The position numbers were made by a program, and so were the translations under genes. Under the pieces are notes generated by a model. The model was not told the origin of the DNA and did no database searches. It worked only from the letters and a program-made list of their open reading frames with translations. Shown one piece after another: positions 2,751 through 28,402 of a stretch of 64,000 bases of DNA. The DNA is from Haliclystus octoradiatus (taxonomy: Eukaryota > Cnidaria > Staurozoa > Stauromedusae > Haliclystidae), in assembly GCA_916610825.1 (NCBI GenBank), contig OU744446.1, positions 7,590,309-7,654,308 on the forward strand, in the 5' to 3' direction. The first letter of the stretch is position 1. The number at the start of each line of letters is the position of its first letter.

Positions 2751-2928
2751 GCCTCAAAAGCGTTTGTTGTCTTGCGGACTTGGTGTACTCTTGCTAAGGT
2801 TCAAAAAGTTTCGAAAGAAACGTATCGTTCGTAACTATTGGGTAAAAGACCTTGCGTAACACAGGCCAAAAGGACGTCGCAAGGTTCCGCAAATAATTTA
2901 ATTGAAGAAATGAGGTTGACTGATAGCA

Positions 2929-3470
2929 ATGGTTTCAGAAACTTTCTTAGGTATTGAGCTTGCATATTTAGATAATATATCAATATTTACAGTAGTGTAT
3001 TCAATTGCATATTTGGCTACTTACAATTTTAGAATGGATAGAACATTATTTGACGAATTACTAGGGAAAGTCAAGCCAGTGGTTACTAAGCAAGATACTG
3101 TGATGAGTGATTCTTTGACAGCTAATCAGAAGTTATCATTTACATTGAGATTTTTATCATCAGGGGAATCATATAAAGATATCATGTATGCATTCAGGGT
3201 ATCAATGTCCTCCATATCAAAAGAGATACCGAAGGTATGCGAGGCAATATATAACGTGGTAAAAGATCAATACCTACCTGCTCCATCAACGATAGAAGAG
3301 TGGTTATCAATAGAGCAAGACTTTAGAAAAAATGGAAATTCCCACATGCAGTTGGTGCAATTGATGGGAAACATATCAACATTAATTACAAGAAACGGTT
3401 TAGCATAGTTCTCATGGCAATTGCTGATGCCAACGCCAAATTTATTAATTTCAAGCTTTTCTAGTTCATG
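2929..3470 (+). pseudogene. PIF/Harbinger transposase, N-terminal half, frameshifted
   Basis: The open frame resembles the N-terminal part of PIF/Harbinger (HARBI1-like) DDE transposases. It has a 'FRMDRTLFDELLGKV' type start, a 'LTANQKLSFTLRFLSSGESY' block and a helix-turn-helix-like stretch with 'FRVSMSSISKEIP'. After the run of six A at about 3326-3333 the reading frame shifts. The next frame continues with 'GAIDGKHI', which holds the first catalytic Asp of the family, and then stops at about 3463. The C-terminal half lies 1.2 kb downstream, beyond unrelated repeat DNA. The copy is therefore dead, through a frameshift and an interrupted coding region. In intact elements this enzyme cuts and pastes the transposon. 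Confidence 0.8.
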
Positions 3471-3517
3471 TTCCGTCTAAGCAGACAAAGTAAACTTGTT
3501 CAAGTGTCAATGAATGG

Positions 3518-3815
3518 TTCATGAAGTTTGCAAGAAGCTCATGAATCATAAACAGTTCATTAACTGTTCATTAACATTTGATTATTCATGAACTGTTTAT
3601 TAACTTTTCAGGCCATTTAACATTTATGAACTATATTCCTAAGTAAGATTATTATATAATCAGATTTGATAGATCCCCTACCAAAAACAATTCAGGAACA
3701 TGAAGAACAGTTCATGAACAGTTTATGAACCTTCACGGGCAGTTCATGAACAGTTCATGAAAACTTGGGGTCATTTAGCGTTCATGAACTCCTGAACTGT
3801 TTTTCGCAGGTAAAT
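3518..3815. repeat. TTCATGAAC palindromic repeat inside the Harbinger relic
   Basis: This stretch is dense in GTTCATGAAC and AACAGTTCATGAA, ending with CTCCTGAACTGTTTTTCGCAGG. The same ends recur at 54637-54809 and elsewhere (see there). It separates the two transposase halves, so it probably inserted into the Harbinger element. Confidence 0.65.
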
Positions 3816-4085
3816 TATGAAGGTCTGCCAAACACATATTGTGAACCTTACAATTTTACTCACTTGTAATAAAAGTTACGAAAATTTATTGAGGATTATT
3901 AATGAAAGGAAAGTTAATGGTTGAGGAATTTTTCAAATATTAAAGGTGGAGGAAATTGTTTTCTTCATACAAGCTTTCTTTGTCTGCTCAAACCAAATAA
4001 AGAACTAAAAAAAGAGCAAATCATCAGAACTGCAGCCAAGCTCATCCATCTTTGATTCAATAGAATATACTATTTTAAGATATTG

Positions 4086-4152
4086 CGAGAGTGACCACTT
4101 TGGACAGATGGCCGCTGTATAGAGATGGCTGTTATAGCAGGTTTGATTGTAT
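4086..4152. repeat. Partial pogo-type 'GGTCACC' repeat
   Basis: The text reads GAGTGACCACTTTGGACAG, then a CTGTATAGAG stretch and a GTTATAGCAGG end. It matches one arm of the copies at 47577-47720 and 55312-55490. It also lies between the transposase halves. Confidence 0.55.
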
Positions 4153-4659
4153 ATGTGTATAGGATATATTCAACATTTTAGGCAAAACCTTTAGGCGAAG
4201 TTCCTGTGTTCAATTTTAATTCCATGGTTAAATTATTAACATGAACGACTGGGTAACTGTAGTCTATGTCATACGTAGTTACAATGATGTCCTGTCGAGG
4301 AGGAATTAAGTTATTAATTCTTTAGTTAATTGGATACATAATGACAGCAGAGAAATTTTAAGCACATTATATGAGCTAAATGGTGCAGGGGTACTATTTC
4401 AAATGATATTCCTTCAAATTAGCCTCACAGCCTCGCTTTCATGTTTCTACTGGGAATGACAGATTATAACAACCAGTGTTGTTATAATCTGTGTGGAAAT
4501 ACCATTAATCAAATTGCGAAATTAAGGCATTTTGCCTACTCCGATTTCAGAATATTTTGGATATGTTGTTAAGCATAAAATTTGACCCTAGAATTTAATG
4601 AAAAATGCTTCTGTTGCAATTTGTGTGAGGTCATTTTTTATAATGACTGTACTAATATG

Positions 4660-4877
4660 AGAAAGTGTTCAATTACAGGTTATCGAGAGCAAGAAGAATC
4701 GTAGAAAACGCATTCGGTATTTTATGCAGTAGGTTCAGCATATTGCTAAGAACATTGCAACTAGACGTCCCAAATGCCATCCAAATCGCAAGAGCTTGCG
4801 TTGCTCTCCACAATTTCTTGATAGATAAGAAGGAACAATCACATCCAACAATAGATTCGTGTAATTCAAATGAGTAA
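4660..4877 (+). pseudogene. PIF/Harbinger transposase, C-terminal fragment
   Basis: The fragment encodes the conserved C-terminal block of Harbinger transposases, 'FNYRLSRARRIVENAFGIL', followed by 'RTLQLDVPNAIQIARACVAL' and 'HNFL'. The Glu of 'VENAFG' lies in the region of the third catalytic acid of the family. There is no usable start codon in frame near its beginning, which reads GTG at 4665. With 2929-3470 it forms the remains of one element in the same orientation. The middle of the DDE domain is lost or overwritten by later insertions. Confidence 0.8.
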
Positions 4878-6081: not shown

Positions 6082-6293
6082 ATGTATGTATGTATGTATG
6101 TATGTATGTATGTATGTATGTATGTATGTATGTATGTATGTATGTATGTATGTATGTATGTATGTATGTATGTATGTATGTATGTATGTATGTATGTATG
6201 TACATGTATGTATGTATGTATGTATGTATGTATGTATGTATGTATGTATGTATGTATGTATGTATGTATGTATGTATGTATGTATGTATGATG

Positions 6294-6322
<29 letters not shown>
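6082..6322. repeat. (ATGT)n microsatellite, about 240 bp
   Basis: About 60 tandem copies of the tetranucleotide ATGT, with interruptions at about 6201 (TACATGT) and 6290 (ATGATGT). Because 4 is not a multiple of 3, the repeat stays open in several frames (MYVC repeats on plus, HTYI repeats on minus). These frames are not genes. Confidence 0.98.
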
Positions 6323-6326
<4 letters not shown>

Positions 6327-8712: not shown

Positions 8713-11700
8713 CTATACTAACAATTTATACACAAAGTTTGTATGCCCTTTTCCAATACAATTACAATCATTTTTGACATCACATTTCTTGTGATCTGGA
8801 TTAACGCAAGATTCAGATGGACCGTGAATATTGTGTGAGAATTCTCCTTCCGTTCCACTCCAGCATTCTCCATAGTATTGTAAGCCAACATATGTGTAGC
8901 CTTTCTTTTGTGCAACAGACACGCAATGATGAAGGAGTCTACATAATAATAAACACACATTAAAGGTACTGTGAATACTTAAGTAGATACTTTGATTTAA
9001 TATTATTTATATCGTAGGCTATACGAGGCTACAAAGCACTACGAGGACAGTGTAATATGAAATTCAAAATATGTAACCCGGCTCATATCCCGTTCTATGA
9101 TGTAACTAATCAGACTCTTGAATTCAACTCAAAAAGTATTCTTCTCAGTTGGAATATGGACCCAAACAGGGGGACGTCCCGCACGTATATCCATCATACA
9201 GGGTCTAACCCACGGCGCCTGGACCCAGATTCAGATTCACATTGTCCAGATCCTCAAAAATGTCAAGGACCAGACCACCTATGCTATACTACAGTATACA
9301 TGTATACAGTATAGTGTATAGTGGGTATTTTGTACCCTCTTTCAACATGATACTCTCTATACGAGACGATTTCCTTCAACCTAGCAAGACTACATTACAA
9401 TGAACAGCTATTTCATGAATTTCTAGTGAATATTTTATAGAACACCGGTAGAACGCGTATAAATTACGCAAGCGAGTATCAACTTACTGCTATAATATAC
9501 TATAAATGTGTGCGGTGGAGGGGCGGGGGGGGGGGGGTAAAATAACTTTGCCCCAAGGTACGAAAATTGGACATGGGATATGATGGACTGGACGTTTCAG
9601 TACTTCATACTACATATTTCATATCGTCAGAATATTTTTGAGTGCTATCAATGATGAACTTGAAACTTGGTCAATAAATGACAGGTAATACCTAATGATA
9701 ATGAGGCATTTTTGTAATTTAGTAGGAATCCTGCTTCAGGCGACATATAGTGGCAGTACGACTTACCGAATAAGAGTAAGGCGGTAATTGTTCCAATCAA
9801 ATTTTTTATACATTTCACTCATTTTATGACGATGGTTGACAAGTAAATGAGGCAATGCACGATTGTCTACGTTATCATGAAAACAACCAACTTTTGCGTA
9901 TTTAACGTCAGGCGGTGGGATAGGATCTGTGAATCAAAATAATGTTAAGATTGAATGTTGTGAATCAGGAGAGAAAGTAATAAAACAAGTTATACTAACA
10001 TCAACGAGATATCTATAGACAATTACACATCTTTGTGAGCTATTTATATTTCAATACGAATTGCTTCAGAGTCATCCCTTAATGGAAATACCAGAAGTTT
10101 TATTACAAATTCTATCAGTTTTAGTCTCTTCAAAAGAAATGATGGAAACTTACTATTTTTATAATATTTAAATTCATTGTAGCCTATTATATAATCACTT
10201 ATTACTAAAAGAATACTATACTTATATATGTGACTCAAATTTGTTGCATACTACTCTTGTCAAAATAAATAATAATAGAGATCCGAAGAGGATTTATGTG
10301 ACTGTGCTGGTGCACGTCACACAACCCCCTTATTTACCAATGACAAGCGAGCGCCCCGTCGCTCTTGTGCATTGTGCAATGGATATTTTGAGAAGTAGAT
10401 ATGAGTGTTGCATGGAAGTGGGCCACACACGTGAGGCTGTTTCTTGCTTTCGACCTGTAACGGTATTTTGTGACCAAAAATTCTAAAGCAGCCTTTTTTC
10501 TTGACTGGCTCCAAGTCCCGCTTACTTTGATGCCGAGATGTGATGGTTGGTAAGCCAACATATCAAAATCGTCATAAAAATAAGTGAGACTTGGGAGCAA
10601 GTCAACCTTTTTTCAAGCTTTAGGGTGATGATACCTTCAGATAAAAATCCCCTTCAGTGACCCTTGTTTTTGGACCTATCTTTGGATTGAGAATATTTTG
10701 GAATAAAAGTGTTACTCAAAGAGAGATGGGCAACGTATCACTGATTAGTACATAGACCCTATATGATAAATTGAAAAATAAACCATAATTGGCATCTACA
10801 ACAGCAGACAAGTACTAGCCATTAACGCGTCATCAGTACTGTTCATGCTCAGTGGACAAGGGACTGACTTCGATTGTTATAGGTTTGTCAAGTTATGAGT
10901 AAGTCAATGTGGTGAAAAAATTCATCACATGAAAAAATCTACTAACCTAGTCTGTAAACAAAATTTGTGTATCCTTCTCCGATGCAAAGTTCTCCAGATG
11001 TCTTGTTGCATCTTTTAAATTCTCCGTCGATACATGTTTTGACTTTACCATCTGCTTTATATGTATTCTGAGCATTTTCACCACTGAAACATTCTCCGTA
11101 AAACTGAAGACCAAATACTTTATATGACTTATCAAAAGTCTTCCTTGCACAATGGCAAACAAGCCTAAAACGACAATATATATATTCATATATCTCGAAC
11201 AAAGCTAATAACTGATCAAAAGTTTCTTCGTAAAACATTTCAGAGTGAAAGATAGCGACAAAAAACTACAAGTAGTGTTCGTTGAAAATGTAGTTGTAGT
11301 TTTTTGCCACTATCTTTCACTCTGTAAAGCTAATAATATAGCCTTTATACATAGGCGTAGGAGCTGGGGGGGCAGGGGGGGCATTTGCCCCCCCCAAACG
11401 CATTTGAGAAAAAAATTCGGGCAATTTTTCGGGCAAATCAACAAATTACAAGTCTTTTGTGGTACAGTGAAAGTGTTCAGGAAATTTATTGTGTATTAAT
11501 AAAATTCAACACTTCACAAAAACAGTTTTATGAACAGGAGTATACTATGTATTGCAAGCCTACTGGCAAGCTTTCTTCTTATCATGTTCCAATCTAATAT
11601 TCATAATTTTATGCAATAATTATGGTTGCTATATCGCTTAATTATTTTGAAGACTCCACCTCCACTCGTTTTGCAATATAAAAAATCCAGAACTCATCTA

Positions 11701-14700
11701 CACGCTTTATATATTAACGTCTAAAAAGATTAAGACCGTGATGACATGAGAAATGTTACATTGACCCAAATGTGTAAGTGGAATTTTTTAGGTCAATTTT
11801 CGGGCAGATCAAGCTATTTCTTATATCTCTTTGCAAATGAAATTATTCAGTCATTCAATATTTCACAGGTTATACGTAACGTTGTCCTGAAAAATATCAG
11901 TAAACAATAATCCAATTTTTCTTGCTCGCTCTGCTCGCAACAATTCTTCGCATCAGATCATATAGGGATTAGTGAAGCAGATCACTATTTGCCATAAAAT
12001 AGGCTTGTCTCGCTCTTTCAAATTAAATACATAACCCAGTGCTGCATATGAAAGTGTATTTTACGGTGCCTAAAATACACTGCTATATGCAGCAAAATAT
12101 TCTGCTCTAAGGTGTCTAGACATTCTCAGGAAATAAAAGTAAATACCTAAAATAGGATGACCTATATGACGAGCCAGGTATGACTAAAACGTTCTTTATA
12201 ACGATCCACTACAGGGATAAATGAACGTTATTATTTACACCGTAAAGCTAAGTTGCAGGAGGAATGGAATAGCTGATAACGGCTTTTTGAATTCAGTAAA
12301 AAATTATATAATCATATATGATTGCTTAAAATGAATGTGATATGAATATGTTTCAATATTTAATGACTGTATTAAGAAATTTGTGGGGCTGAAGGAGGCC
12401 TGTGATGTCTGTGTTTGTATCCTGTGATACATCTTCTGTAATTTTGCATGTGAGTTACCTCTTATAACAACATTTCCCGGAAAAATTTTTTCGGGCAAAA
12501 CCATTTTTGCCCCCCTGGTTGGAAATGTGCCCCTACGCCTATGCCTTTATACTTCATCAAGTATAACACAGGTCCTATAGATTTCTATGGGAAAATAATA
12601 TACAAAAACGTACTTATATCGTGAGACAAGAGAAAATCGTAGGGTGAATATTTTGTCATGCTTTTCGACTTCGAGTACCTCATCAAGTACATCAATAATT
12701 GTATTATCTTCCAAAAAGATCGAGTGCATGTGTTATAGTTGATTTATGAGGAATTATAACTCATACAGCAGAAATTTGAAGTTTCTGATTATTCATATAG
12801 TGATATCCTGCTTCCTAACAGCACCTAGCAAATACCCTCTATCTTGTGATGTATATTTGAGTGTGTATGTAAAAACTATTTGTTGTTGTTGCCTTTGTAA
12901 CATCATCTTTATTTAATTAAGGGGATGTGTTGTCTGTCAAAACCTCGTTTCAATTTAGGATTTGGAAGTACCACTCTTTTTTTTTTGTTTTTTTTTTTGG
13001 ATTTATCATTTATCCACAAACCGGGTAAGCTTGTAGCTTTTTTTCACCGGGGTGGTTGGTTAATTTGTTAGTATTTTGAAGCTTGTGTGCGTTTAATAGC
13101 CGAATGCCCTTCCTGACGCCAACCTATAGTGCTTCGGACAGGTATTGAACCCAAGACCCTGCGGGCCGTGGTCCAACCCCCTAGCCACTACACCAAGGCC
13201 GATGTGGACACATATCCCATTGAGGGTATCACAAAGTTTGAAGGGATTATGCAAATGGTAGAGGACTGTATAGCAAGTTCATTAATTTCCTTCAATCTTT
13301 GGTCTTTTATTATTCAACAATAAGCCCAATTCAATAAACAAAATAAATAGAATATGGTAGTAGTTGGTTGCCTGTTGGTTGCCTGTTGGTAAAGTAGTTG
13401 GTTGCCTGTAACTGCGACTCAAAGAAGAAACTTTAGTAATAAGTTAACAAAATATTTATAATTAAATCAAAGAGATGCTATCATCGCCAGCCACAGTTAC
13501 AGAACACATGTAATTAAAGGGTGCAGTAGCCTTGTATATTTTGCTATTGCACCATACTTTACAAACAACCAATCATAAAACAACACAAGACAATCACACG
13601 TATCAACTTTAGCTCTAAGTCCAATGTACTAATTACAAACACGCTAGGTACAGAACATAGTTACAACACACAAACGAGGTTAATATTAAAGTGAGGCTCA
13701 GGCGATCACAGAGGGAGAGTGTGCAGCATATTGCCTTTTATAATAACCAGATTTACATATTTTTTTTTGCTCAATGGGTCTATGATATATATAAGACAAA
13801 CAACAAAATAGACGTATTTGTTCTTTGTAAGATATTATGGTATTTTCAAGCAGTGATGAAATGAAAAAGGGCGCATATGGGACATCTGAATAAAAATGTT
13901 CATTTGATATAAAATAATTTACAATATAATGCAGTAATCTCAAATATATCTTACAAATATGAACTTAAAAACATAATAAAACAAGGGTTTATATTGAATC
14001 AAATTCACTTACTTCCTAACAGATTGTTTGTAATCCCCCCATTTGATGACGGTGTTGTCGAACTCTGTTGTTCGATGGTTATCCAGTAACTGTGGGATTG
14101 GTCTGTTGCCTATGTAACCTTTGTCTGAATAGCAACCAACTGGTTGAAAACTATACATACACGGATCTGCAATACCGATAAAATATAAAAACGTGTGAAT
14201 GTTGAACCTATAGTGGCTTACGGGTGGCTTACTTCAGGCCAGGGTCCACAAAAGTAGAAATCTTAGATTCAGGAAGGTTGGAGCAAATTCTGAAAAAAAT
14301 GTTGAAATGTCTTTACGATTCCAGAAGGCCGAATCTTTTGTCGGAACCGACTTCAGACTTTCCAACATCATGCTGTATGTATTTTATCGATAACTAATAT
14401 GTAGGTATGACGTGTAGGAGATATGTAACTCTAATAGGTGACCTCCTAGGTGCAATTGTTAAAGGAGCAAAAATGACCGGCAGGCGCTACGCACTTAGGA
14501 TCACGTGCACGCTTATTGTTATAACACAATGTTCATTGTTGACATGAATTTTATTATAAGTTAGGCCTGCGTATAACAATTGTTTCAAAGCGAGACGGTT
14601 GAATTACGCTAAGCATAAATTCAACTTGTGCTCGCAGCGGTCGCCGGTCAATTTTGCCCCTTTAATTATTCAAGTATTTTAATATAGCTATTCTACCCAT

Positions 14701-17683
14701 TTTTAACATATTTAATTCTGTATACATAATTTTAACAGTTTACACCATTCATTTTTAATCTACTTTAGATCAAATCATGATCAAATCAAATGTAAAAAGC
14801 GCTAGCGATGGAGCGTAGAATAGAATATGAGCAAAACATTCGCTCAACATCCCATCATGCATGTTGATCCTAGGAATCTGATATTTACTAGTCTTGTATT
14901 TGGCATTTGGTGCTTGGCTGATGGGGTGATCTGTGTAAGTTGTATGTAGTAGGCAATGAGGCCTGTCACCCCCCCATCAGCAAGCCCCAGTCACACTGCT
15001 AAGTCAGTGGAATTCCTAATCATACTTCCCCATAAAATATGCGGAGTGGAGGGTGGGAGATATATCATCAAAACCTTGGAATGTAATTTCCCAAGACGGA
15101 TAGCTGTTGTAGCAGTTATATTGACCCAATGCATTGAGCGCATTAGGGAGTAGTAGCATATAATTGGGTTACTGAGTGAACAGCTGCTATGTATTGAATG
15201 CAATGGCGTGAGATGTAATGAAACTGACTTGTAATAATAGTAAGTAATATTGAATGACTGAATCAATATCATTCTGCTGATAGGTTAGCATACTGCAAGG
15301 CATTTTTGAAGATTAATAAATTTAGCAGTAGTGATAGCAGTAGCGACATCGATAACTAGCAGGGTTGAACTGATTATATTTTTTTTGGCATCTGTAATAC
15401 CCTAGGTTAATTAATTTCAAGTGCCTAATAATCAGGTGATAATCTATTAAACACGTGTACCAGAATTTTGAATATATGAAATAGAGTATTAATAATCTGT
15501 TATCCGTTGCGTCTTTCACCATAATGGTTAGTCAAGCCAAGAGGACATTTTTCAAGTGTTAAGGCCGGGTACCGGCATTATAGATGTTAATAAATGCAAT
15601 TTGGACGATCTTTTTATTTGTGTTAATAGATTATGTTACGATATATTGGTATGTTTGTTAGGTTTCAGATTTGCTATTTTACATTATATGAGTTGGTATT
15701 GAAAAAAACTTTTCGGTCGATAAATAAATCTACACAAATACATACCGCACTCCTCCGTCGCGTCTTGCTGAATATTCACTCTCCTAACATGTTCATACCG
15801 AGATTGCATGAAATCGAGTAATTGCGTCTCTGCTTTGATTTCATCTTGCATGTGTTTCAAAGCATTGTCTTCTTCATTGCTTTCATTATAATTTTCATCT
15901 GAATTGTTATCTTCGTCTGTGTCTTCTTTTTCTTCATAATCGTCGATTTCCTCATCCTCGAGGTTATTAACATCGTCATCTGATTGAAACTCTGTTGCAA
16001 TTCTTGATTCATAACCTGCGTAATAAACGCACACACAATAAACAATATCCTTGCCTAGATTACATATTTAAATAGTCATTACTTAAATTAGCGTAGTCTT
16101 TTCTGTTTCAAATTGTTTATATGTCTTGGATTAAACTTTCTATCTAAACAAAAATAAAAAAATCATCTTTAAGACTCAATACCACCTATGAACCCGATTG
16201 GGAACTTCCATCTTTTTTGAAAGGGTATCATTTCCAATAAAACCGGCAAAGCTATTATAGGCAGAGCCATCTATTTACAAGAGTTGGGACACTTCTGCCA
16301 TTTTTGTATCTTTTTGCCTGGACCCGAGCACGTTTTAACAGTGCGCATGTGCAGGAGAATGTTGTGTGTTTTTTTCAGCCATATTGGATTGTATTTTTTC
16401 GCGCGTTTCACTTGAAATGATCGACAACCTGTTTCTGAAAGAACAAAGATGGCGTCCAAAAATCACGTGACTGGCATCTGTCCAATTGGAGACGATAGCG
16501 GCACATGAAAGCGTGCCTCAACTCTTGTAAATAAATGGCTCTGATTATAGGGTGCTAGCAAGATGATGTAAATGTACCAAATGTAAATTACCAAACCCAT
16601 TGTACCAATTTAAACGTAATTTTTTTTCATTTCGTGTTGTAAATATGTGGAATGTATTACCAGAAAATGTTGTAAATTCAATGTCTCTAAATCTATTTAA
16701 ATGTCGTTTAAATTAGGTAGATCTAAGCAAATTTTGCAAATGTTTTAAAAAAGGTTTTATGTAGGTGCTTTTCGAAGCCATTATTAGCCTAATTTCATAA
16801 CTACATATGAATTGAAATGAAGTAAAAAAAAAAAAAAAAAAAAATGGCACACACGCCATGCACACACACGTACAAAAACTACCGATGTACCCTCTGGGCC
16901 AATAGGACTCTGAATTCGTTCAAAATTGAAAACAAGATGAATTAAACACAAGTTTCTGCATAATAAAGAATCCTTCATGTAGACTTGTTATAAGATAAAT
17001 TCACGCATTTGATTCTCTCCCCTGTTCCCTCACTTTTGCCATGAGTTTGAGAGGATGCATTGAACATCGTATTTATATGCACACTGGCTATCTACTGTAG
17101 TGGAAATAGCACCAAAGATGTGTTTCATACACACTATACAGTATTATACATTCATATACAGTTGCTCATACATTGATACTTGTTATGCTAATGCGTATTA
17201 CCATAATTAGACTAATATCGACTTCCCCTTTCCCCTGTGTATTACCCTTTATTTTACTAATTACATTTGACTCCGTTTTGAAATCTCTACGAGAGTGGAT
17301 GTTATTTTATCGCTCTCAATCATTTTACCCTCATAACATACTACTATATACGTTTAATACTCATCTTTAATAACTCCTACATTGGATTCATACCTTCAAA
17401 ATTATCTCCTTCAAATTTAGAGGGAAATTGGTATATATACAGAAGTCTTAAGAAATTGCTTGTGCGATGGCATATAGTATTCGTATTTAATTGGTGAAAT
17501 GTTCATGGATTTCATGTATAATAAACACCGATGGACTTATGATGTAACTGCATGATCAGATCTGATCTTCTAACATAAACTACGTGAAGCCCATATATTC
17601 TTCAAATTTACAATAAATAAACGCATAAATTTCTTACCTATGATGTAAATGAAACACAATAGACAGAATAATAATTTCTTCAT
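8713..17683 (-). CDS. Secreted acidic protein with two WSC-like module pairs (paralogue 1)
   Basis: Six exons in frame (minus): 17683-17638, 16015-15746, 14166-14013, 11164-10947, 9926-9767, 8938-8713, giving 357 residues. Exon 1 is a signal peptide ('MKKLLFCLLCFIYIIG'). Exon 2 (residues about 16-105) is a linker dominated by Asp, Glu and Asn. Then come alternating modules. A modules (exons 3 and 5) carry a 'VGCY/VGCF...RPIP/RALP...LL.NHR' pattern. B modules (exons 4 and 6) carry 'FGLQFYGECFSG' or 'VGLQYYGECWSG', spaced Cys, 'CIG' and 'TNFVY'. The GLQxxxECWSG motif resembles the WSC carbohydrate-binding domain family, so an extracellular glycan-binding or matrix role is an inference. Intron phases are 1,1,2,1,2. 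All exons are module-sized, suggesting exon shuffling. A good 3' splice site lies 25 nt before the ATG. The gene faces its paralogue at 22142-28402. Confidence 0.85.
9057..9766. other. Intron 5 of the minus-strand WSC-like gene
   Basis: This is non-coding. A 13-G run at about 9526-9538, preceded by GGTGGAGGGGC, is the only strongly G-rich spot nearby and could form a quadruplex. A short TATAC/GTATA palindrome lies near 9295-9315. Confidence 0.4.
11241..11324. repeat. Short foldback, about 31-bp arms
   Basis: CAGAGTGAAAGATAGCGACA at the left and its near-exact complement ending CTATCTTTCACTCTG at the right pair over about 31 bp, with a roughly 22-nt loop. It lies inside intron 3 of the minus-strand WSC-like gene, just beside the 11351 element. 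Confidence 0.8.
11341..12552. mobile_element. 1.19-kb non-autonomous DNA transposon, 10-bp TSD
   Basis: The body is 11351-12542. It begins ATAGGCGTAGGAGC and ends GCCCCTACGCCTAT, an inverted repeat of about 14 bp with one mismatch. Both sides are flanked by GCCTTTATAC (11341-11350 and 12543-12552), a perfect 10-bp target duplication. The inner ends are C/G runs (GGGGGGCATTTGCCCCCC left, TTGCCCCCC right). No transposase is encoded. Duplications of 9-10 bp are typical of Mutator-like elements, but I cannot assign the family. It sits in intron 3 of the minus-strand WSC-like gene. Confidence 0.8.
12976..13202 (-). mobile_element. tRNA-derived SINE
   Basis: On the minus strand the element starts at about 13202 with CGGCCTTGGTGTAGTGGCTA (A-box-like) and has GGGTTCAATACC (13152-13141, B-box-like) about 50 nt later. 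This is the spacing of an internal RNA polymerase III promoter. A GGCGTCAGGAAGGGCATTCG stretch follows, a body sequence seen in several animal tRNA-SINEs. It ends in an A-rich tail, seen on the plus strand as T runs at 12976-12998. It lies in intron 3 of the minus-strand WSC-like gene. Confidence 0.75.
13354..13412. repeat. Short tandem GTTGGTTGCCT repeat
   Basis: GTAGTTGGTTGCCTGTTGGT is repeated with partial units about 2.5 times. It is a small local tandem duplication within an intron. Confidence 0.8.
14240..14375. repeat. Dispersed repeat, 'TTAGATTC...GGTTGGAGCAAA' family
   Basis: The segment has AGATTCAGGAAGGTTGGAGC near the left and GATTCCAGAAGG and CTTTTGTCGG near the right. Similar text occurs at 53583-53690, 56395-56560, 57235-57350, 59805-59880 and (opposite strand) 60165-60305, where GATTTATTGGTCAAAC is also shared. 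It is a dispersed family of unknown class, with about six diverged copies in this window. Confidence 0.55.
14413..14452 (+). repeat. Diverged fragment of the LTR found at 39229
   Basis: TGTAGGAGATATGTAACTCT, followed by a block ending TCCTAGGTG, closely matches the first 41 bp of the LTR at 39229-39269. It begins with the same TGTAGGAGAT terminus. It stops abruptly next to a TTAA MITE that begins at 14459. Confidence 0.55.
14459..14665 (+). mobile_element. TTAA-flanked MITE, copy 1
   Basis: The ends are TTAA-AGGAGCAAAAATGACCGG and CCGGTCAATTTTGCCCCT-TTAA. The element matches 22510-22724 in inverted orientation through almost its whole length; both carry CGCTTATTGTTATAACACAA or its complement. 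TTAA duplications are used by piggyBac and Kolobok-type elements. It has no coding capacity. It lies in intron 2 of the minus-strand WSC-like gene. Confidence 0.85.
16618..16716 (+). pseudogene. LINE ORF2 C-terminal fragment
   Basis: The plus-strand frame encodes 'FFSFRVVNMWNVLPENVVNS' followed by a short 'LNLFKCRLN' end and a stop. The R.VN.WN.LP..VV..S...FK..L pattern is the typical C-terminal end of CR1/Jockey-type LINE reverse transcriptases. Upstream sequence is degenerate. It is a 5'-truncated relic lying in intron 1 of the minus-strand WSC-like gene, in antisense orientation to that gene. The A20 run at 16824-16843 is too far away to assign to it with confidence. Confidence 0.7.
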
Positions 17684-18304
17684 TGTGATTCAGAATATTC
17701 CAGAAGATCTGTAACATAAAATAATTAGCTTCTAATAACATTTGCCTACTATTATGTATATATGCTATGCGATACTGATGACACATTTTGATCTAAAAAT
17801 AAATATATCGGAATTATTACAGTTGACTAACCATATTTTTTTTCAAAGAACAACTAAATTTTGTCAATCTTTAGGTCACACAACTTCACATCTTAAACCG
17901 CATAGAAGTACTCTTAATAACCGTTCGCATTACGATGCATGTGTACAGTATTATTATTCATCAAGCAAAGTTCAACTCTTGATGTTGAACATTTTTTGTG
18001 AACTATCAAAGTATCAAGACATGGATCATCTCCTCTTTAAATTTTGAAAGGCAGTAATTCCTTGATTTCCCAGTGACATTAGAATGAAGTGAATTTCTGA
18101 TAAAAAACGTACAATATTTACCATGCAGTCTGTCCATGAGGTGAAACAGTGGATGATGTGATTCAGCGAAAGTGAAATCGTTGAATGAAAGATAATTAAT
18201 TTTGTTTTCACAGGCGGTGATATTATAGGAACCCGTTAAAATTGATTGATGTTTTAATTATAATAGGTATATAAACGACAATGATATAAATGAAACAAAG
18301 ATTC

Positions 18305-18360
18305 GTCAAGTTTTACCGTGACTCTGAGTTTCGCGCTTGTGCGCTCTTTAGACGGAATTT
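18305..18360 (-). ncRNA. Decayed hammerhead-like motif
   Basis: On the minus strand, GCGC-ACAA-GCGC-GAAA-CTCAGAGT has the stem II hairpin, the GAAA core and a short stem III candidate. The first core box reads CTAAAGA instead of CTGATGA, so it would not be active. The layout parallels the motif at 7985-8112, and both probably derive from the same kind of Penelope-like element. Confidence 0.4.
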
Positions 18361-21300
18361 ATTCTAATGGGTGTATCAGTTAATTAATTCTAATTCAGAA
18401 CTGCATTAATAGTGAGATTAAGTGCAACTATACCGCGCAAACGTCAGGCGGAAGGCTGAGAGGAAAGTATTACAAAGAATGCTTTACTAATTTGAGCAAG
18501 AACTTCTGAATGATACATCTTGCTTGAAAATATGCCAACGTTGAGTTTGGAGAGAGGGGTCTTCTTCTGTAGGAGAGCGGTGCAGCAAAAATCCCATTAA
18601 CAGGCTCACATGGAACAGTTTTCTAGATTCATAAATTTTATATCTCAGAATTTCAGTGCATACCGTAACATATAGCCTCCACTCCAAAGTGGCAATATGT
18701 CCTCTAATACTATTGCATTTTTCAATTGTAAAATTGGGGGATTTTGTGAATCGAAGAAAGTCCCCAGCGCGGTGAAGTGCGGTTATAAACAATATTGTTT
18801 CTTGTTTTCATGTATTAACGAAAGATATTATCAGCTTTTAGTAAATAAACTATTCAAAAGACATTTTTATTGTGCTTGTCTCACAGCATTTGACGGCGGC
18901 ACAAATTAATGTAAACAAGAAGATTATTCTGATGAGATAATGTTGTCAATTTAATTTTGATCATAAGCAGATTACTGTTGTAAATGATCTTCAAATCCTT
19001 CGTAACGATACCTTGAACGATACTAATGTGCTTCAATGTAACGTCATGGTTAAAATTGGATGATGGTGGTTGGATTACATGGAAATTAGTTTTCTATTAA
19101 AATCATATATGTATAATCACAAAAAATATATACGCTCAAGCCTTAAGTCAATATAATATATACCAAAAATAAAACCATTTTACATTCGTCCTTTTACTGC
19201 CCATGAGGAGCAGCTCCTGATGAAGTCGTATCCCGATTGCAATCTATATTCAGCGTCATCCCCTATAGATAATGCTAATTAGTTATAATCTTCTAGATGT
19301 TGCTTATTAAGTAGGCGGCTACCTACACGTATAGCGCTAGTTAATTTCAAAGACCATGTGTTTACTTTTGGTTACATGGAAATGCTATATTCAAATTTTC
19401 ATGGCATTGAAAATACATCACTATCAAAATAAGTAGGCACAGAAGTAGGACGTACTATAGTACATTTATGAAGGTTCATATACAATCAGAGCAATTGAAT
19501 GTATATCGAGTCTACATACAATAGTTCACGTCTTGGTTAGATATCGCTTTGACTACTGCATTTAATTTGGTCTAAACCCCAATTCAGCAACATCCATCGT
19601 CTGACACACAATTTTTCTTTCTCTTCATTGATAGAATCAAGTCGCAGTCGTAACATCATTTCACATGGGTATCGATATATTGATTCTTAAATTCGTTACA
19701 CATTCATACTTAATTCAAATCATGTCCCAAAAATGAATGGAAACGCTGTGTTGTCTCATAAAATCTCATTAGGTTTGGTCATTGATCTACGAAACACAAA
19801 TTAATACCATTTTAGTACTGTAAAGTGCATATATATATGGAGAAGAATTGCTGAAAAACTCCACCCTCCGCTTGGCTTCGTGGTACCCGCAAACGGCATT
19901 ACTATTACTACGTACTGTATATGGGCAAAAATAGTATATAATTATACTGCGTTGTGTCCTTTGTCCTATATGTGATACGGAACAATAAACTTTTATTAAG
20001 ATGAAATTCAGCAACCCAACACAGATCCCATTCCTAAGCTCTATTTTCTGATTCTGTGAAGGGAGTTTGAAAATATTGATCAAGATATAGTGAGTAGTGA
20101 GTATATTTTCGACAAGACTATCATAATTTAAGTCTTCGATAAATCATTACAACATAAATACAATTGACAATCCTACCTCGTATGTAGGTGTACCGTGTAT
20201 AGAATTAACTGTCCAGGTCAAATATTTCTTCGTATATGAACGACCACCGGCAACGATCCCTCTCTAGCTACATTCCTTTCGGAATTTCCAAAATCCACTA
20301 TATTTGCCGCTTATTTCAAAATAATAATTTAGTCTCCTAGGTAACTGATCTTCTTATTTACATAACCCCAAAGTGGTATCGATAACTGACATTACGGACA
20401 TTAAAGTCAAGATTGTCATCATTATTGAAACAATATTTGCACCACATTCCAAGATTAGGCACAATCGGGGCACCACCCGCTACATAATTATTTTCATTCT
20501 GTCAAAATGATCAATTTAGAATATAAATTTGAAACCAACGCAATTTACAAATCATATTTTAGTGCCTATATTTTTATCTTTCGTATAAAGTACGATTTAT
20601 TTTTATTAATTTTCAATTGTATTATATAACAATGACTATGAAACAAAGATAAAATGTAATTTAAAAATAAATTCTTAGGTTAAAGTCTTCATTAGGACTA
20701 TTCATTCATCCATGTTTTTATTTCAAATAATTTGTGCATGCTATGAGGCATTCAAGAAAAATCTGAAAAGACCGTTTCGAAAAATCTGCCTATACAAATA
20801 GCAATATGAAATCATGAAATATGATATACCGTAAACATAGTAAAAGATATAATGGAATTGTGTTGACAGAAATATTATGTGTGCAGTGTGGCTAGTGGGT
20901 GTGTACATACAATGTACACACAAAAATCATCAAACTCATCCAAGAGCTCTCGCCTATACAGAGATATCCTCGCAAGTTTTCTCCGTTATGCTTTTGGCAA
21001 TAATTGTTACAATAAATTGAGCTACATAACTCAATATTTATTGCAACACCACAGATCATAAATATTTCAAATCTCTGTTCAACATGGAAAAATGCTTTCA
21101 GACCTCCGATTTCAGTGTTTTTCCACATAACTTTATAAAGTTTAATTGTAGAGTTTCATTAAATACCTTTCCGACTGTATATAGTGCTATATCATAAGAA
21201 TTTATATATGTATTAATAGAGTAAAAATGCTGCAACCAATCAGAATCAGAGCATTTATATATAGGTCCTTTAGTAATCTTCATCGCAATTTAGTTAAATA

Positions 21301-21750
21301 GTTCGTTGCATTCGACTTATATTTCGATCACTTTTTAAAGCAATTTTTTCGTATTGTTATAATTTTGTCAAAAACAATCATGGATCATTTTTCAGTGTCA
21401 ATATTGCTGTTACTATGGTGTTTCGAGAAAAATAATCAGATTTCTAAATTGGGTGTGTCCTTACGATGAAATTATGAAATATCTAAAATTTTATTGTTGC
21501 TATGCTGTATATAATACTTAGAACACATATTATTGAGATTGGGCAGACGGCGAAGTAAAGATCATACGATACGAAGGGTAAGTGTTAAGACATCTTGACC
21601 GTAATGCAGAATAAGAAATTCTATGTATATTTAATTTGCCTAAAATATCTTTGAAATCCATGGATGTTGTTCGCGTAGAACGAAATAGAATTTTGTAGCT
21701 GTACAGGAATTTAATTTATTTTAAAATACTCACAAATTTCCATTAGTTTT

Positions 21751-21890
21751 AAATTTGGAAACATTTATCGAAAATCCAAATGCTTTTATGATACCGACTA
21801 TGTATAGACTACTGTTGGTCAAATTTAGAAACACTTATTGAAAATGCATGTGCTTCTATGATACTGACCATGTATAGACTACTGTTGGTT
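21751..21890. repeat. Two-copy 70-bp tandem repeat
   Basis: Units 21751-21820 and 21821-21890 share AAATTT(G/A)GAAACA at the start and TGTATAGACTACTGTTGGT at the end, with scattered differences. The repeat lies about 220-360 bp upstream of the 5' exon edge of the plus-strand WSC-like gene. Confidence 0.9.
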
Positions 21891-22141
21891 ATCTATATGG
21901 TTATTTAGATGGCCTTTTTGCTCTATTAAATACCGAGATAACGTGTAGCCAACTCAACCCATCTTCAACTGAAATACGACGACAGTAATGTAAAAAATGT
22001 ATACTATTCCAAGTTTAAAAATTGTAAGAATCATATAATAAAATTTATTATCATATTCCAATACTTTCTTGAGAATGATCAATCTAATTTGGATGGTTTT
22101 TCATTTTTAGGTGATTGGAAGCTGTAGCACATCGGGTCAAC

Positions 22142-25100
22142 ATGAAGACTTCTATCTTTCTGCTACTGTTATTTAATATCTTAGGTGAGCTGGATGATAC
22201 TGTTAATAACATTTTCAGATTCTCAACTCAAGGGGGCGTAATTTGAGAACCTGATGCTTAGACTGTTTATAGATAGCAATATAAAGTTGGCGAAAATCTT
22301 CTGAAAGCTATTTTAGGCTGTTAATTGTTATATTTAGATAAGGACAGGAGTCTTGAGTCTAATAGCTATCAAACACAAACTCAAAGGGCATAGTATATAG
22401 TATATATATAGATATTTGAACGATCCCAAGAAAAATACAGTAATCAAGTATTTATGCAATTGATGCCATTTTGTGAGACGAAAAAGCATCATATGTGTTT
22501 GATCAGATATTAAAGGGGCAAAATTGACCGGCGACCGCTGCGAGCACAAATTGAATTTATGCTTAGCGTAATTCAAAATTTCAACCGTCTCGCTTTGAAG
22601 CAATTGTTATACGCAGGCCTAACTTGTAATAAAATTCATGTCAACAATGAACATTGTGTTATAACAATAAGCGTGCACGTGATCCTAAGTGCGTAGCGTC
22701 TGTCGGTCATTTTTGCTCCTTTAATCAAATACCAAGGAATCAAATTCTATCCTGCAAAAACGAAATCTGCAATATAACGCATCAAAATCACTAGCAAAAG
22801 TTTCAGACAAAATAAGAATAATCAACTGTTAAGCAAGCAGAACATTCTTTGAAGAATTCAATATCTCATGTGCATCACTTTTTCAATTCATGTAAAATAA
22901 ATAATAGAGATCGCACTTACACAGAATCAAATATGTGAGGAAATCTCATAGAGCATACATGGACGAGTGTGTTTGAGTATGTTATTTAGTATCACGGTGT
23001 TACCAATTGTATTTCCCTGGAAACGAAATGGTGTTGACGTTGACCTATCACAACATAGCTATTATTATACTAAAAAGGTTAAAATAACATTCCGGCATTG
23101 TCTATAACCAACGACACTATGGCCAGCAGCTTCCAAGGAAATAGCAGAAAGTAAAAAAAAAATCTATAATAACGTATAAGTATATTAGGATGTTTGGATG
23201 TTGCTCTGGTGCGTTACAAATATAATAATACTTTATGTATAAATTTTCAGTTCAAACCATTTAAATGCGCTGTTGAATTTGTTTTTGAGGAAATCCTGCA
23301 CAGCATACAAATAAAGTTGCTTATCATTATAGGAAGATATAACGACCAAATAACGACGATATGACAATCAATTGACGAATTTTTTTTATATAATTTTTTC
23401 CCATCCAACATAATTTTTTAATTCAATTTCATCACAATAATACTAAAGGGCTACCACACAATTGCCGTGTTTGTATTCATATTTACTACACGAGAAATGT
23501 TGGAAGACACGAGTGGAGTATTGAAAGCTCAATCCGGACGCGAGTGCTTTCAACACTTCCCTAGTGTCTTCCGCCATTTCCAAGTGTAGTAAGTATGAAT
23601 ACAAACACGACAAAGTGTGTGGTAACCCATTTCTAAAATAAAACAATTATCAAAATCAAGATTGTTTGCATTGCAGAATGTCGCTCAAATCTTGAATTAA
23701 TGATTTAAAATTCAATTCAAATTCAATGTTTTCATTTTCTAAAATGTCCTTGGATCAAATTTAAACTACAAACGTTAGCCTATTCTTAATAGAGATAGCT
23801 TTGTTGTTATTATTTATTTAGCAATACATTGCAGTTTCCTACTTTTCTTCAGCTTTGAGGATCTGAAAAATTTTATATACGAATTTCGACTGAAATTTTC
23901 GAAAAAATGTTTACCTTGTATTTCCAATTGACCAACCAATCAAATTGCAGGATTACGTTTTTTCTTGCCTTTGAAAGAATGTCCATTGGCGGATGTTGCT
24001 TCTCAAATTGAGCAGGATAGTGTTTTTCATTGAATGATTTTAACCAATCGACTATACATATGACGACTATATGACGAAGGACGGTATAATCATGATATAA
24101 TTCATCAAATCTAATATATTAAGTAATTAATATTTTGATTGTGTCTGCTTATATAGTTATACAAACGATTTCTGCAACTCATGATCATTTCGAAGAAGAA
24201 GAGGATGAAAATGCCACTGAGTTAGAGAATGAGAACATCGAAGAGGATGAAGATATTGACGAAGATGATGAAGATGAAGATAGAGAAGATAGAGAAGATA
24301 ATGATGCTAGCCAATTAAATTACGAAGATGATGATGACGATGAAGATAATGAACACAATGATCTAACAGATCTCAATTCAAAGGATGAACTTGAGAAACG
24401 AGGTTATGGGTATCATTACAGAAGAAGAAAGAAGCCACAGCCAGAAACATGTGGTAAGTTTATGCTAAGAATCCCAATTATATAGAGCACATTCTAAATA
24501 GGAAAATATCCCGAGGGGGAAAATATGTAGTTTGCATTTCGTTATGATCATGAAAGCACTTCGAGCTGTTGTTTCAATATTGAAGTATTGTATGTAAATC
24601 ATAGACTTTGCATAGACTGCATGCTGACGAAAATATGAAACACGGGGAACAAAGATGGCTGACGCAAATGACTTATTTTAGCTCTCTTCTCAGTTCACAT
24701 TTTCAACTGAAATACTTGATGTTTCTTATAAACTCGTTTGCAATCTAAACTCTAAACAATATGCTCTCACTGTCATAGAAATATGGTTTTAAATGGAAAA
24801 ATAGGAATTTACAGCCAGCGAAGCGAGATTTATTCGTAGGATCACAATTATTTTCAAACATTTATGAATAATTCAAAGTCACACTGATAGATAAGGAAAT
24901 ATAAAGTTAGAGAAAAAACTATTTACCTTCAGATACGATTACAAAACAGATAGTTCAACTCATAAATGATGAAGCTTTAGATTCTACGTCATAAATAGCT
25001 CTTTTATTAAAGACAAATATGTAGCCCTATTGGTATAAATGTAATAATCAGTTATTTTTAATGAGAAAAATGTATTTTTCGATGCTCCCTATGTTAGGTC

Positions 25101-28100
25101 AATACTCTAGCATATTTCCTTTAGACCTATAAATATTTCTGACAAATTCGTGGTTTCATATTCCACCGAATGAACCAATTATAGCAAGTATTATAATTAT
25201 TAACATCTATTAACTGATGTATCCTTTTGAAGATCTTTGCAATCAAGCCTTCACACCCATTGGCTGCTATGGTGATAAACATTGTAGATGTAGTCGACCG
25301 ATGACAAGGATGCTTTTTCAAACAAAAAAATGTCACAAGAAGATGGGAAGCGCTGAATTTAAGAAGCACGTAGAAAGGTATACAGCTAGTACACATAAAC
25401 TAAACTTCATGTGTTGACAAACTGAATCTTCAATCATATTCAATATTGATAATTTGTTGTAACTTCTACATAAGAACACATTGTATGAGAACGTTGTTGT
25501 TCCGATTTTCGAGTTTTTAAGTATATATATAGCTTTCAAGCAGGGAATTAAGAATAGACTACAGGTTCCACCAAATTTGAAGTTTCTTGATTAATTAAGA
25601 AGTATAATATAGTTGTAAACCTTGTGCACAAAGTTACACTGCCCACACATACCAGGAATATCCCTCTACAAGATATTTCCATTAAACTGTAATTATGAAT
25701 TTATGATATAATTCATGAATAAAATCTTTTGACAGCGTTTAGCATGTCAGATGAAATACAAAAAATGATCATCAACATCATGCCTGACAAGAGTGACAAA
25801 AGTAGTACTGTCTCTTCTGTCATCTTACTATCTGATGAGCTTGTCAGAATCTGCCAATGCCAAACAATTTGCCTGTTCTGATGGTGTATAGGTGATTACA
25901 ATAGCTTCCACTCATAAGTAAAATTAATTTGCATTAAACCCTGGTTCCCATATAGCCAATTTGTCTGCGTCCTTGCCTGCGACATTTGCCTCGTTCGGGT
26001 GTTCAACTTGCAGGCAAATGTCGCAGACAAGGACGCAGGCAAATTGGCTATATGGGAACCAGGCTTAAATAGGAAGCGGATACAAAATGTCATAAATATT
26101 GAAAAGGGGTGGAATCTGAGAAGGACATCTTATTTAGATTAGTGGCTATTGTTTACAAAACAATGGAACGATGACGACATCGCCTAAGCTCATCAAAAGT
26201 TAATAATCAAGAACTCCTTTCGAAAGTGCGGGTTGAAATAATATAGGAAAAAAAGTTATCTTTTCTTTCGAAATGCGAAGCACGGAAGGATTTGAAAACG
26301 CGAATACTCTATTTACACACAATGAACAATAACTAATCGATTGGTATGCTTATCGAATGTTTAGCACACAGATTGGCAAAGATGAATGCATACATACATA
26401 CCGGACAACACGCAAAAAGAAACTAACAAATATAGGCTAAGATACACGCTTATAGCTCATTCTTATTCTTGCTGTTATCAAAAGACATATTTATGATATC
26501 ACTTATGTTGAACTAATATTGTGTGTTCTAATGACTCATTATTAACATTATCAACTTTCCTTCTCCAAAATAGTGTAATCTGCAGATGTGCGAAAGAGAG
26601 CAGAAAGCGTGGTTATCAAACTTTTGGAATCCAAGATCACCATCAATGCTGGAGTGGAAGTAGAGCGCACAAAGATTATTATGTGAATGGGGAACGAGAA
26701 AAATCTTGCTACAATCTTGATAGAAAAATATGCAATTCTACCAAAGATCGTTTGTGCATTGGTGGAAGAAGAGCAAATTATGTCTATAAATTAGGTATAG
26801 ATTTGCTTCTTTGCAATATTTTGTATAATGATCTTTTTAGTAACAATGATAATAATCGTACTATACTAATCACTTTCATTTTGATTGTAGAACCAATAAA
26901 AAAGCCTGCTGTAAAATTCTCTCGAGTTGGCTGCTTTAATGATAAAAAAGACGACAGAGCGTTGAAATTTGAATTGGATAATCATCGTGATAAAACTAGT
27001 AAAATATTCCACGGACCAATCATTGACTGGAAAAAGTTTGAAAAAACCATCAAAACGTAAGTCTGCATGCCACTATATGTAAATCCTACAAAATGCAAAA
27101 CGTAGCTATGTCTGGATCACACACCATAGGCAAATTAGCCACTGCTGAGTTCATATGCATTTATCATAAACTCAGTCATATAATATACACTCCCAAAAGG
27201 TGTTATTTTATAAAATTTCTTGTGAACTTTCATCACGCCGTTTGGAGAAAAGCTCCTGCAAACGGCCAAACTGGAAACCGTCACTTTGTTTGCAGGAAAC
27301 AAATGCGATAATGGAAAGCAAATTTGAAAATGTTGGAAATACCAGAAATCAAAATAACAGTCGTCAATGTATCGTTGAAGCACGACATGACAACTTCGGC
27401 GCATAACTGAGACATATGCCCTGGATTTTACAAAACATGATATAACGAAGTTTAGGAATGTTATTCGACAGCTCTCAAAATGAATGCATGCACGCATGAA
27501 TGGCGTGCCATCATCACTGACCCGAGGCGATTTAAATGTTTCACCCGTGCTTTCTCCAGTTATACCATATAGTTTATATAGTAGAATAGTTTATATAGTA
27601 GAATAGTTTATATAGTAGAATAGTTTATAAACTATATTTATATGTAGACTGCAATATTCAAGTTGTGCCACGTTCAACTTTTGATCATCACTTGAATGAA
27701 GCTATGCCCGTTGATTAGGCGAAACTTTATAGGGCATATATTTTTGTTTCTTTATCGTTCTTCTAAATGTATCAACTAAATTTATGTGATACACATGATA
27801 TTTTACTTGATTCAAGCATTTTACATGCTAAGGTATTGAATGTTTTGTCTTGCAAGTTAAATCATTACGGCCGTGTTTGGTCGAGCATAATACATTATTT
27901 AGGCACGGCACATGTAAAAGCACGGCGTAAAACGTAGGCCTATTGACTTTAACAACTTGGGCTGCAGACATGAAACTATTTATTCTAATGTGAAATTGAT
28001 TATGCAAGATTACTTGCAGGATATATTGAATTATCTAAGATGTTCTCGAGAGATTCAGAATTCGTCCTGTCCTCATTGTTTCTTGGATATCAATTAAAAA

Positions 28101-28402
28101 GGTTTCATGTGAATCACTGTCAGCTCTCGCAGATGATGTTTAGCTATTATTCATGTCATTTGTATTATTTATTTAGTCTTGCTGATCATTGTGCTGAGAA
28201 GGCCAAAGCAAAAGGCTACAAATATTTCGGTCTTCAATATTACGGTGAATGTTGGAGTGGAAATGATGGAGAATCACGCTACAAGATGCATGGTTCATCA
28301 AAGGCATGTGTCAATTCAGAATACAAAGAATGTGACATGTCAAAGGATTGCTTGTGTATTGGAAAACAATTAACAAATTTTGTTTACAAAATTGACGAGT
28401 AA
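22142..28402 (+). CDS. Secreted acidic protein with WSC-like module pairs (paralogue 2)
   Basis: Six exons in frame: 22142-22184, 24157-24453, 25233-25377, 26574-26794, 26891-27056, 28177-28402, giving 365 residues. Exon 1 is a signal peptide ('MKTSIFLLLLFNILG'). Exon 2 (residues about 15-113) is a long Asp/Glu run that ends in a basic stretch ('YHYRRRKK'). Exons 3 and 5 encode A modules, exons 4 and 6 B modules; exon 6 has 'YFGLQYYGECWSG', 'CIGK' and 'TNFVYK'. Intron phases 1,1,2,1,2 are the same as in paralogue 1. The first A module keeps 'IGCY' but has lost the usual LPxLLxNHR part and gained extra Cys. The first B module reads 'FGIQDHHQCWSG'. The second pair is the better conserved. A poly(A) signal AATAAA lies near 28703. 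Function is unknown; an extracellular glycan- or calcium-binding role is inference. Confidence 0.85.
22510..22724 (-). mobile_element. TTAA-flanked MITE, copy 2
   Basis: The ends are TTAA-AGGGGCAAAATTGACCGG and CGGTCATTTTTGCTCCT-TTAA. It is the inverted counterpart of 14459-14665. It lies in intron 1 of the plus-strand WSC-like gene. Confidence 0.85.
23448..23628. repeat. Long foldback element, TIR GGGYTACCACACA
   Basis: The left arm (GGGCTACCACACA, then GTGTTTGTATTCATA and GGAAGACAC) pairs with the right arm (GTGTCTTCC, TATGAATACAAACAC, then TGTGTGGTAACCC) over about 75 bp. The outer end matches GGGTAACACCACACACTTGC at 50480-50510, so this is a mobile foldback family. It lies in intron 1 of the plus-strand WSC-like gene. 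Confidence 0.8.
25936..26068. mobile_element. 52-bp-arm foldback flanked by TTAA
   Basis: Left arm 25940-25991 and right arm 26012-26063 are complementary with only two mismatches in 52 bp, around a 20-nt loop. TTAA lies just outside both ends (ATTAAACCCTGG; CCAGGCTTAAAT). It is probably a minimal TTAA-targeting MITE. The near-perfect arms suggest recent insertion. It lies in intron 3 of the plus-strand WSC-like gene. Confidence 0.85.
27569..27640. repeat. 17-bp tandem repeat
   Basis: ATAGTTTATATAGTAGA is repeated about 3.5 times, ending in ATAGTTTATAAACTAT. The unit is nearly palindromic and AT-rich. It lies in intron 5 of the plus-strand WSC-like gene. Confidence 0.9.
27637..27860 (+). repeat. 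Dispersed repeat shared with 40003-40680
   Basis: The segment opens TATGTAGACTGCA and contains GTGCCACGTTCAACTTTT, ATTCAAGCATTTT and GAATGTTTTG. The same blocks, in the same order, occur at 40003-40150 and 40610-40680, where about 450 bp of other sequence separates them. The class is unknown. Confidence 0.65.

What the first reader, a model, noticed from the sequence alone, without database searches (positions are those of the whole stretch)
8713..28402. Head-to-head pair of secreted acidic, WSC-like modular proteins
Two genes (minus 17683-8713, plus 22142-28402) have the same plan: signal-peptide exon, one-exon Asp/Glu-rich linker, then A-B-A-B Cys-rich modules, with identical intron phases 1,1,2,1,2. 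The modules carry GLQxxxECWSG and TNFVY motifs that resemble, but do not equal, the WSC domain. A strong polyanionic segment joined to putative glycan-binding modules suggests a matrix, mucus, adhesive or mineral-binding role. I know of no described protein with exactly this order. Alternative: an ordinary lineage-expanded family already predicted in related genomes.
Basis: partly seen in the sequence, partly recalled or inferred. Interest (0 to 1): 0.75.

Follow-up and report, generated by a model that had tools for sequence, protein, structure and literature searches.

The report
Acidic-fronted twin WSC-like jellyfish genes
Two neighbouring genes of a stalked jellyfish encode secreted proteins made of a strongly acidic front part and two variant WSC-type (possibly sugar-binding) domains; they belong to a large family of such genes in this animal, and the acidic front part was not found in the relatives that could be examined.

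Summary
Both six-exon genes splice cleanly (GT-AG, phases 1,1,2,1,2) into signal-bearing proteins of 357 and 365 aa. The window lies on chromosome 1 of an assembly whose sizes match Haliclystus octoradiatus, Staurozoa. The "A-B-A-B" modules are two copies of one domain, each cut by a phase-2 intron. The domain is a divergent WSC: both whole proteins pass Pfam's WSC cut-off (34.9 and 33.3 vs 27.8 bits), but 1 of 4 single domains does. It keeps six of eight WSC cysteines, lacks the C53-C71 pair and reads CIG for CGG. The family is expanded: 41 exon matches in 20 clusters. The unusual part is the acidic exon (net -21 and -37). It was not found ahead of the first domain in 8 relatives with a candidate signal exon, and each acidic exon matches only itself in the genome. 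In both genes a dibasic site follows it, then a basic two-domain part (pI 8.6, 9.3). I read this as a pre-pro-protein: an acidic pro-part for granule packing, then a two-domain surface- or glycan-binding protein. Function is inferred, not shown.

The parts
17638..17683 (-). minus gene exon 1: signal-peptide exon, ends in phase 1
   Evidence: spliced translation, donor GTAAGA; hydrophobic
15746..16015 (-). minus gene exon 2: acidic pro-segment or linker, phase 1 on both sides; dibasic RR at residues 93-94
   Evidence: only itself found in own genome
14013..14166 (-). minus gene exon 3: WSC-like domain 1, first half
10947..11164 (-). minus gene exon 4: WSC-like domain 1, second half
9767..9926 (-). 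minus gene exon 5: WSC-like domain 2, first half
8713..8938 (-). minus gene exon 6: WSC-like domain 2, second half and stop
22142..22184 (+). plus gene exon 1: signal-peptide exon, ends in phase 1
   Evidence: spliced translation, donor GTGAGC; hydrophobic
24157..24453 (+). plus gene exon 2: acidic pro-segment or linker, phase 1 on both sides; KR at residues 95-96 and RRRKK after it
   Evidence: only itself found in own genome
25233..25377 (+). plus gene exon 3: WSC-like domain 1, first half
26574..26794 (+). plus gene exon 4: WSC-like domain 1, second half
26891..27056 (+). plus gene exon 5: WSC-like domain 2, first half
28177..28402 (+). plus gene exon 6: WSC-like domain 2, second half and stop

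Best explanation
The two genes are divergently placed members of a large staurozoan family of secreted proteins built on a variant WSC (PAN/Apple-class) domain. Each makes a pre-pro-protein: signal peptide, acidic pro-segment, dibasic site, then a basic tandem of two disulfide-rich domains. Most likely (inferred) the acidic part neutralises and packs the basic part in the secretory granule of a gland cell or stinging cell and is cut off at the dibasic site; the freed two-domain protein then binds carbohydrate or other polymers, cross-linking the animal's own mucus or adhesive, or coating prey or microbes. Shown by calculation: gene structure, relation to WSC, family expansion, charge pattern. 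Inferred: cleavage, packing, ligand, tissue.
For: Gene models and phases. Pfam WSC over cut-off in both whole proteins, two stretches each. Six of eight WSC cysteines align with Kremen-1 and a fungal WSC chain and can be mapped on the Wsc1 disulfides given in PMC9024836 (passages). Family expansion: 41 and 31 matches with two B-exon queries, 20 clusters at 50 kb or less. A consistent phase-2 intron between the halves in 13 of 13 relatives tried. Charge -21 then +7, and -37 then +21; RR/KR end at residues 94/96; both tandems 253 aa. dN 0.34 against dS 2.15 between the second-domain B exons (dS near saturation). Two WSC domains in the annelid glycerotoxin are called putative carbohydrate-binding domains (PMC5336659, passages). 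WSC proteins are listed in sea anemone venom (PMC6627431, passages). Adhesive regions of Staurozoa have glandular epidermis (PMC5088631, passages).
Against: No expression, proteomic or binding data. The dibasic sites are plain KR/RR (no full furin motif by eye), and dibasics also occur inside the domains, so cleavage is uncertain. If cut there, the minus protein would be only mildly basic (+4, pI 8.26) against +25 for the plus protein. The two acidic exons do not find each other, so a common origin rests on position, phase and composition; masking of low-complexity sequence may also limit those searches. Window domains found no WSC chain among solved structures, and a profile comparison with two WSC chains gave 31% probability. 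No structure could be predicted (queue full at 17 tries, last).
Confidence: 0.5

Rival explanations
1. The acidic segment stays on the mature protein as a polyanionic, cation-binding tether and the WSC-like domains anchor it to glycans: an adhesive or mucus matrix protein.
For: Very high Asp/Glu content (28 of 76 and 42 of 75 residues); staurozoan adhesive regions are glandular (passages).
Against: Dibasic sites lie between the acidic part and the first Cys in both genes, and the rest is basic; 8 relatives with a candidate signal exon show no acidic exon, so the domain seems able to work without it.
Confidence: 0.25
2. The proteins are nematocyst or gland venom components, the tandem domains acting on prey surfaces.
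For: WSC proteins listed among sea anemone venom components; tandem WSC in glycerotoxin; expansion in clusters.
Against: No tissue data; WSC domains also occur in non-venom proteins such as Kremen-1 and Wsc1; a listing in a venom proteome does not show toxicity.
Confidence: 0.25
3. Pseudogenes or unexpressed remnants.
For: The first domain of the plus gene is divergent (15.0 bits to WSC); no expression data.
Against: Two full open frames with ten clean introns, conserved cysteines, dN below dS for the one window pair where dS could be computed within the window.
Confidence: 0.05

Closest known systems
WSC domain, Pfam PF01822 (yeast Wsc1, human Kremen-1)
   Same: Order of conserved residues: GC..D, helix Cys, Cys before (S/C)G, three late Cys; whole proteins pass the Pfam cut-off
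   Different: Equivalents of C53 and C71 missing, CGG reads CIG, extra CxC and N-terminal cysteines in 18 of 24 family domains scored; 3 of 4 single window domains under the cut-off
Glycerotoxin of the bloodworm (PMC5336659, passages seen)
   Same: Secreted, two WSC domains
   Different: About 140 kDa with EGF and CCP domains and a long unknown C-terminus; the passages seen mention no acidic pro-part
WSC domain proteins in sea anemone venom (PMC6627431, passages seen; the original proteome paper not seen)
   Same: Cnidarian secreted proteins with WSC domain
   Different: No sequences available to compare
Relatives in the same genome: L037, L039, L040, L043, L046, L047, L048, L049
   Same: Candidate signal exon ending in phase 1, then A half and B half
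   Different: No acidic stretch (11 of 30 or more) in the regions read

Membership tests
WSC domain (PF01822) | Whole-protein score over Pfam gathering cut-off 27.8 | tested here: met
   34.9 and 33.3 bits
WSC domain (PF01822) | Each single domain over the cut-off | tested here: not met
   1 of 4 window domains (30.2); the others 20.7, 26.6, 15.0
WSC domain (PF01822) | Eight cysteines in four disulfides (27-86, 90-98, 49-69, 53-71 in Wsc1; PMC9024836, passages) | tested here: not met
   Six of eight positions kept in 4 of 4 domains, C53 and C71 equivalents absent; in the family alignment no Cys at the C53 place in 20 of 20 rows that reach it, nor at the C71 place in 21 of 21 (read by eye)
WSC domain (PF01822) | CGG motif | tested here: not met
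   CIG in 4 of 4 window domains; C-x-G with x other than G in the other rows
WSC domain (PF01822) | PAN/Apple fold | not tested
   structure prediction queue full at all 17 tries
WSC domain (PF01822) | Carbohydrate or protein binding | not testable with these tools
   needs a binding assay
Pre-pro-secretory proteins cut at a dibasic site | Signal peptide, acidic pro-part, dibasic site, Cys-rich mature part | tested here: inconclusive
   All elements present by sequence; cleavage not shown. The pattern is recalled; two papers searched for pro-part terms held no passage

The most novel reading that the evidence does not exclude
A WSC subclass with a rearranged disulfide set (the C53-C71 bond lost, replaced by a bond from an N-terminal cysteine to the first Cys of the helix CxC motif) has radiated in a stalked jellyfish, and in this pair it acquired by exon insertion an acidic charge-balancing pro-part, giving a new class of stored, charge-neutralised glycan-binding secretions used in staurozoan adhesion or prey capture.
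Probability: 0.2. Interest if true: 0.55.

Novelty: new variant of a known kind. Interest (0 to 1): 0.33.

Why it matters
Of nine single copies of this domain tested, eight fall under Pfam's cut-off and two of these give no WSC hit at all, so the family is probably under-annotated. The pair looks like an exon with matching phases added to one branch of an expanded secreted family, and the family is a concrete candidate set for staurozoan adhesive, mucus or venom secretions. In the passages I read, none of these proteins was described at sequence level.

Tried and rejected
Searches for relatives in viral contigs and prokaryote genomes gave none confirmed by tblastn (39 and 37 pattern matches). 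Sequence search of solved structures with one domain and with the four-domain profile found only a designed repeat protein (E 1.1 and 0.16), no WSC chain. A profile-profile comparison with two WSC chains gave 31% probability over 56 columns, which is weak. Five motif strings (GECWSG, QYYGEC, QFYGEC, CWSGPNA, NYVYRL) were in no paper of the library. Papers on WSC and Cnidaria were few: 5 hold 'WSC domain' and 'cnidaria'; other term sets gave 0, 4 and 2. No Rfam match at gathering score and no tRNA in the window. That the acidic exon is shared family-wide was rejected for the regions read: no acidic stretch of 11 of 30 or more ahead of the first domain in the eight relatives with a candidate signal exon. 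Two acidic stretches did turn up elsewhere: 12 of 30 in L001, the locus of an ordinary WSC hit (not followed), and 14 of 30 in L050, ahead of its candidate signal exon; by eye the latter resembles a mobile-element protein (not tested). Cysteine pairing, scored by eye: of 24 domains 18 have both the N-terminal and the CxC cysteine, 4 neither, 2 only the CxC; Fisher P 0.0014 (table typed in). Dropped before the count: repeated views of the same exons and the near-identical L011; L019, L029, L030, L033, L034 (one half not readable); a lone helix piece in L035; and the second domain of L025, which would be discordant but whose exon edge is unplaced. The rows are related, so the P value is too small.

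Full report
The finding holds. From the raw sequence I spliced both genes by hand. Each has six exons, five GT-AG introns and the phase series 1,1,2,1,2; products are 357 and 365 residues. The genes diverge, with 4,459 bp between start codons. Each begins with a hydrophobic signal-like stretch and has no second strongly hydrophobic segment (highest 15-residue mean outside the first 30 residues 1.1 and 0.76), so both look secreted. No transcript data were available.

The source could be named. The window is G000:C1:7590309-7654308 in a 261,861,806-base assembly of 33 contigs. The nine contig lengths shown equal, to the rounding given, the nine chromosome sizes in Table 2 of the genome note for the stalked jellyfish Haliclystus octoradiatus, which also gives 33 scaffolds and 262 Mb (PMC9975415, abstract and passages). 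The match rests on these numbers; the tools gave no name.

Pfam finds WSC (PF01822) in both whole proteins above its cut-off, two stretches each. Taken singly, 1 of 4 window domains passes (30.2); the others score 20.7, 26.6 and 15.0 against 27.8. Of five relatives tested none passes, three hit weakly and two have no WSC hit. Aligned with Kremen-1 and a fungal WSC chain, the window domains keep GC..D, the first helix cysteine, the cysteine of GEC and three late cysteines. In yeast Wsc1 the disulfides are 27-86, 90-98, 49-69 and 53-71 (PMC9024836, passages). Both cysteines of the last pair are absent in all four window domains; in the family alignment no row has a Cys at either place (20 of 20 rows that reach the first, 21 of 21 for the second, read by eye). 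Loss of both partners together fits a WSC-derived fold that dropped one bond. CGG reads CIG. I therefore call the domain WSC-derived and do not file it as a plain WSC domain. Against this reading: the window domains found no WSC chain among solved structures, a profile-profile comparison gave 31%, and no structure could be predicted.

The family is large in this genome. The B exon of the plus gene finds 41 matches at E <= 0.001, four of them the window's own and two with an internal stop; the first B exon of the minus gene finds 31. The 41 fall into 20 clusters at 50 kb spacing, the largest with seven members on chromosome 1 at 5.34-5.40 Mb. The tool calls such counts lower bounds. The Pfam WSC model itself rings at six other places in the genome and in 0 of 14 control genomes. 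In 13 of 13 relatives tried a consistent phase-2 intron lies between the halves; these were picked because their halves break before the helix, and three of them had more than one possible junction. Four other loci (L022, L025, L028, L035) appear to break just before GECW instead, and the rest were not tried.

A tree of 21 B exons is poorly resolved (3 of 18 inner branches well supported); the second domains of the two window genes group with a long-branched relative, L012, at 89/91. Of ten pairs compared, dS could be computed in seven, and dN is below dS in 7 of 7, only just in L016-L018 (0.48 against 0.50); three values of dS are above 1.6. For the window's second domains dN is 0.34 and dS 2.15; for the other three comparisons within the window dS failed.

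The distinctive part is exon 2. It carries net charge -21 and -37 over 76 and 75 residues up to a dibasic site (RR at 93-94; KR at 95-96). The two-domain remainder, 253 residues in both, is basic, +7 and +21; counted from the dibasic site it is +4 and +25. Of 15 upstream regions fetched (L037-L051), eight (L037, L039, L040, L043, L046, L047, L048, L049) have a candidate phase-1 signal exon ahead of a first half and no stretch with 11 or more acidic residues in 30. Five of these are in one cluster and two in another, so they are not independent. The same scan put the known signal exons of both window genes first, but the candidates are unproven. The other seven (L038, L041, L042, L044, L045, L050, L051) I do not count: no first half, no or weak signal candidate, L045 cut too short; L050 has a fair candidate, with an acidic frame lying ahead of it. 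Searches of the genome with each acidic exon found only itself, though masking may limit this. An exon with phase-1 introns on both sides can be added without breaking the frame, so gain in this pair is the simplest account; loss elsewhere is not excluded.

How it most likely works: a pre-pro-protein whose acidic part shields and packs the basic two-domain part in a secretory granule, is cut at the dibasic site, and frees a protein that binds glycans or other polymers. Cutting, packing and ligand are inferences. For context I have passages only: two WSC domains in glycerotoxin, called putative carbohydrate-binding (PMC5336659); WSC proteins listed in sea anemone venom (PMC6627431); a trypsin-WSC protein in Nematostella (PMC6767649); a WSC protein of unknown role in a coral temperature proteome (PMC5792016); glandular adhesive epidermis in Staurozoa (PMC5088631). 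None tests this family.

Cysteine pattern: many family domains also have a cysteine shortly before GC and a CxC at the helix. Of 24 domains scored by eye, 18 have both, 4 neither and 2 only the CxC (Fisher P 0.0014, not corrected for relatedness; one discordant but unplaced domain of L025 left out). The second domains of both window genes lack both. This suggests, without proving, a subclass-specific disulfide that replaces the lost one.

Verdict: a lineage-expanded secreted domain family, an ordinary kind of thing, with a real variation in this pair. Interest is moderate to low until expression or binding data exist.

Noticed in passing
window 14459-14665 (minus) and 22510-22724 (plus): A TTAA-ended miniature inverted-repeat element sits in an intron of each gene; its first 27 bases occur 682 + 715 times in the genome with up to 2 mismatches, 0 in the reversed control.
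   Followed up: partly
window 2920-4877: Remnant that looks like a Harbinger-type transposase; the 4656-4874 frame hits Pfam DDE_Tnp_4 at 2.5e-11, the 2920-3405 frame has no Pfam hit (the Harbinger label is recalled).
   Followed up: partly
window 6082-6323 and 52140-52346: Long near-perfect simple repeats, ATGT x 60 and TTCTA x 41.
   Followed up: no
window 26795-26890: Intron 4 of the plus gene is 96 bp and open in frame, so its retention would keep the reading frame.
   Followed up: no
L010 and L011 (G000:C7:8898235 and 8964516): Two family copies 66 kb apart differ at 9 of 3,216 bases: a very recent duplication or an assembly duplicate.
   Followed up: no
L022, L025, L028, L035: A second branch of the family seems to carry its intron just before the GECW motif, not before the helix (splice sites not modelled).
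   Followed up: partly
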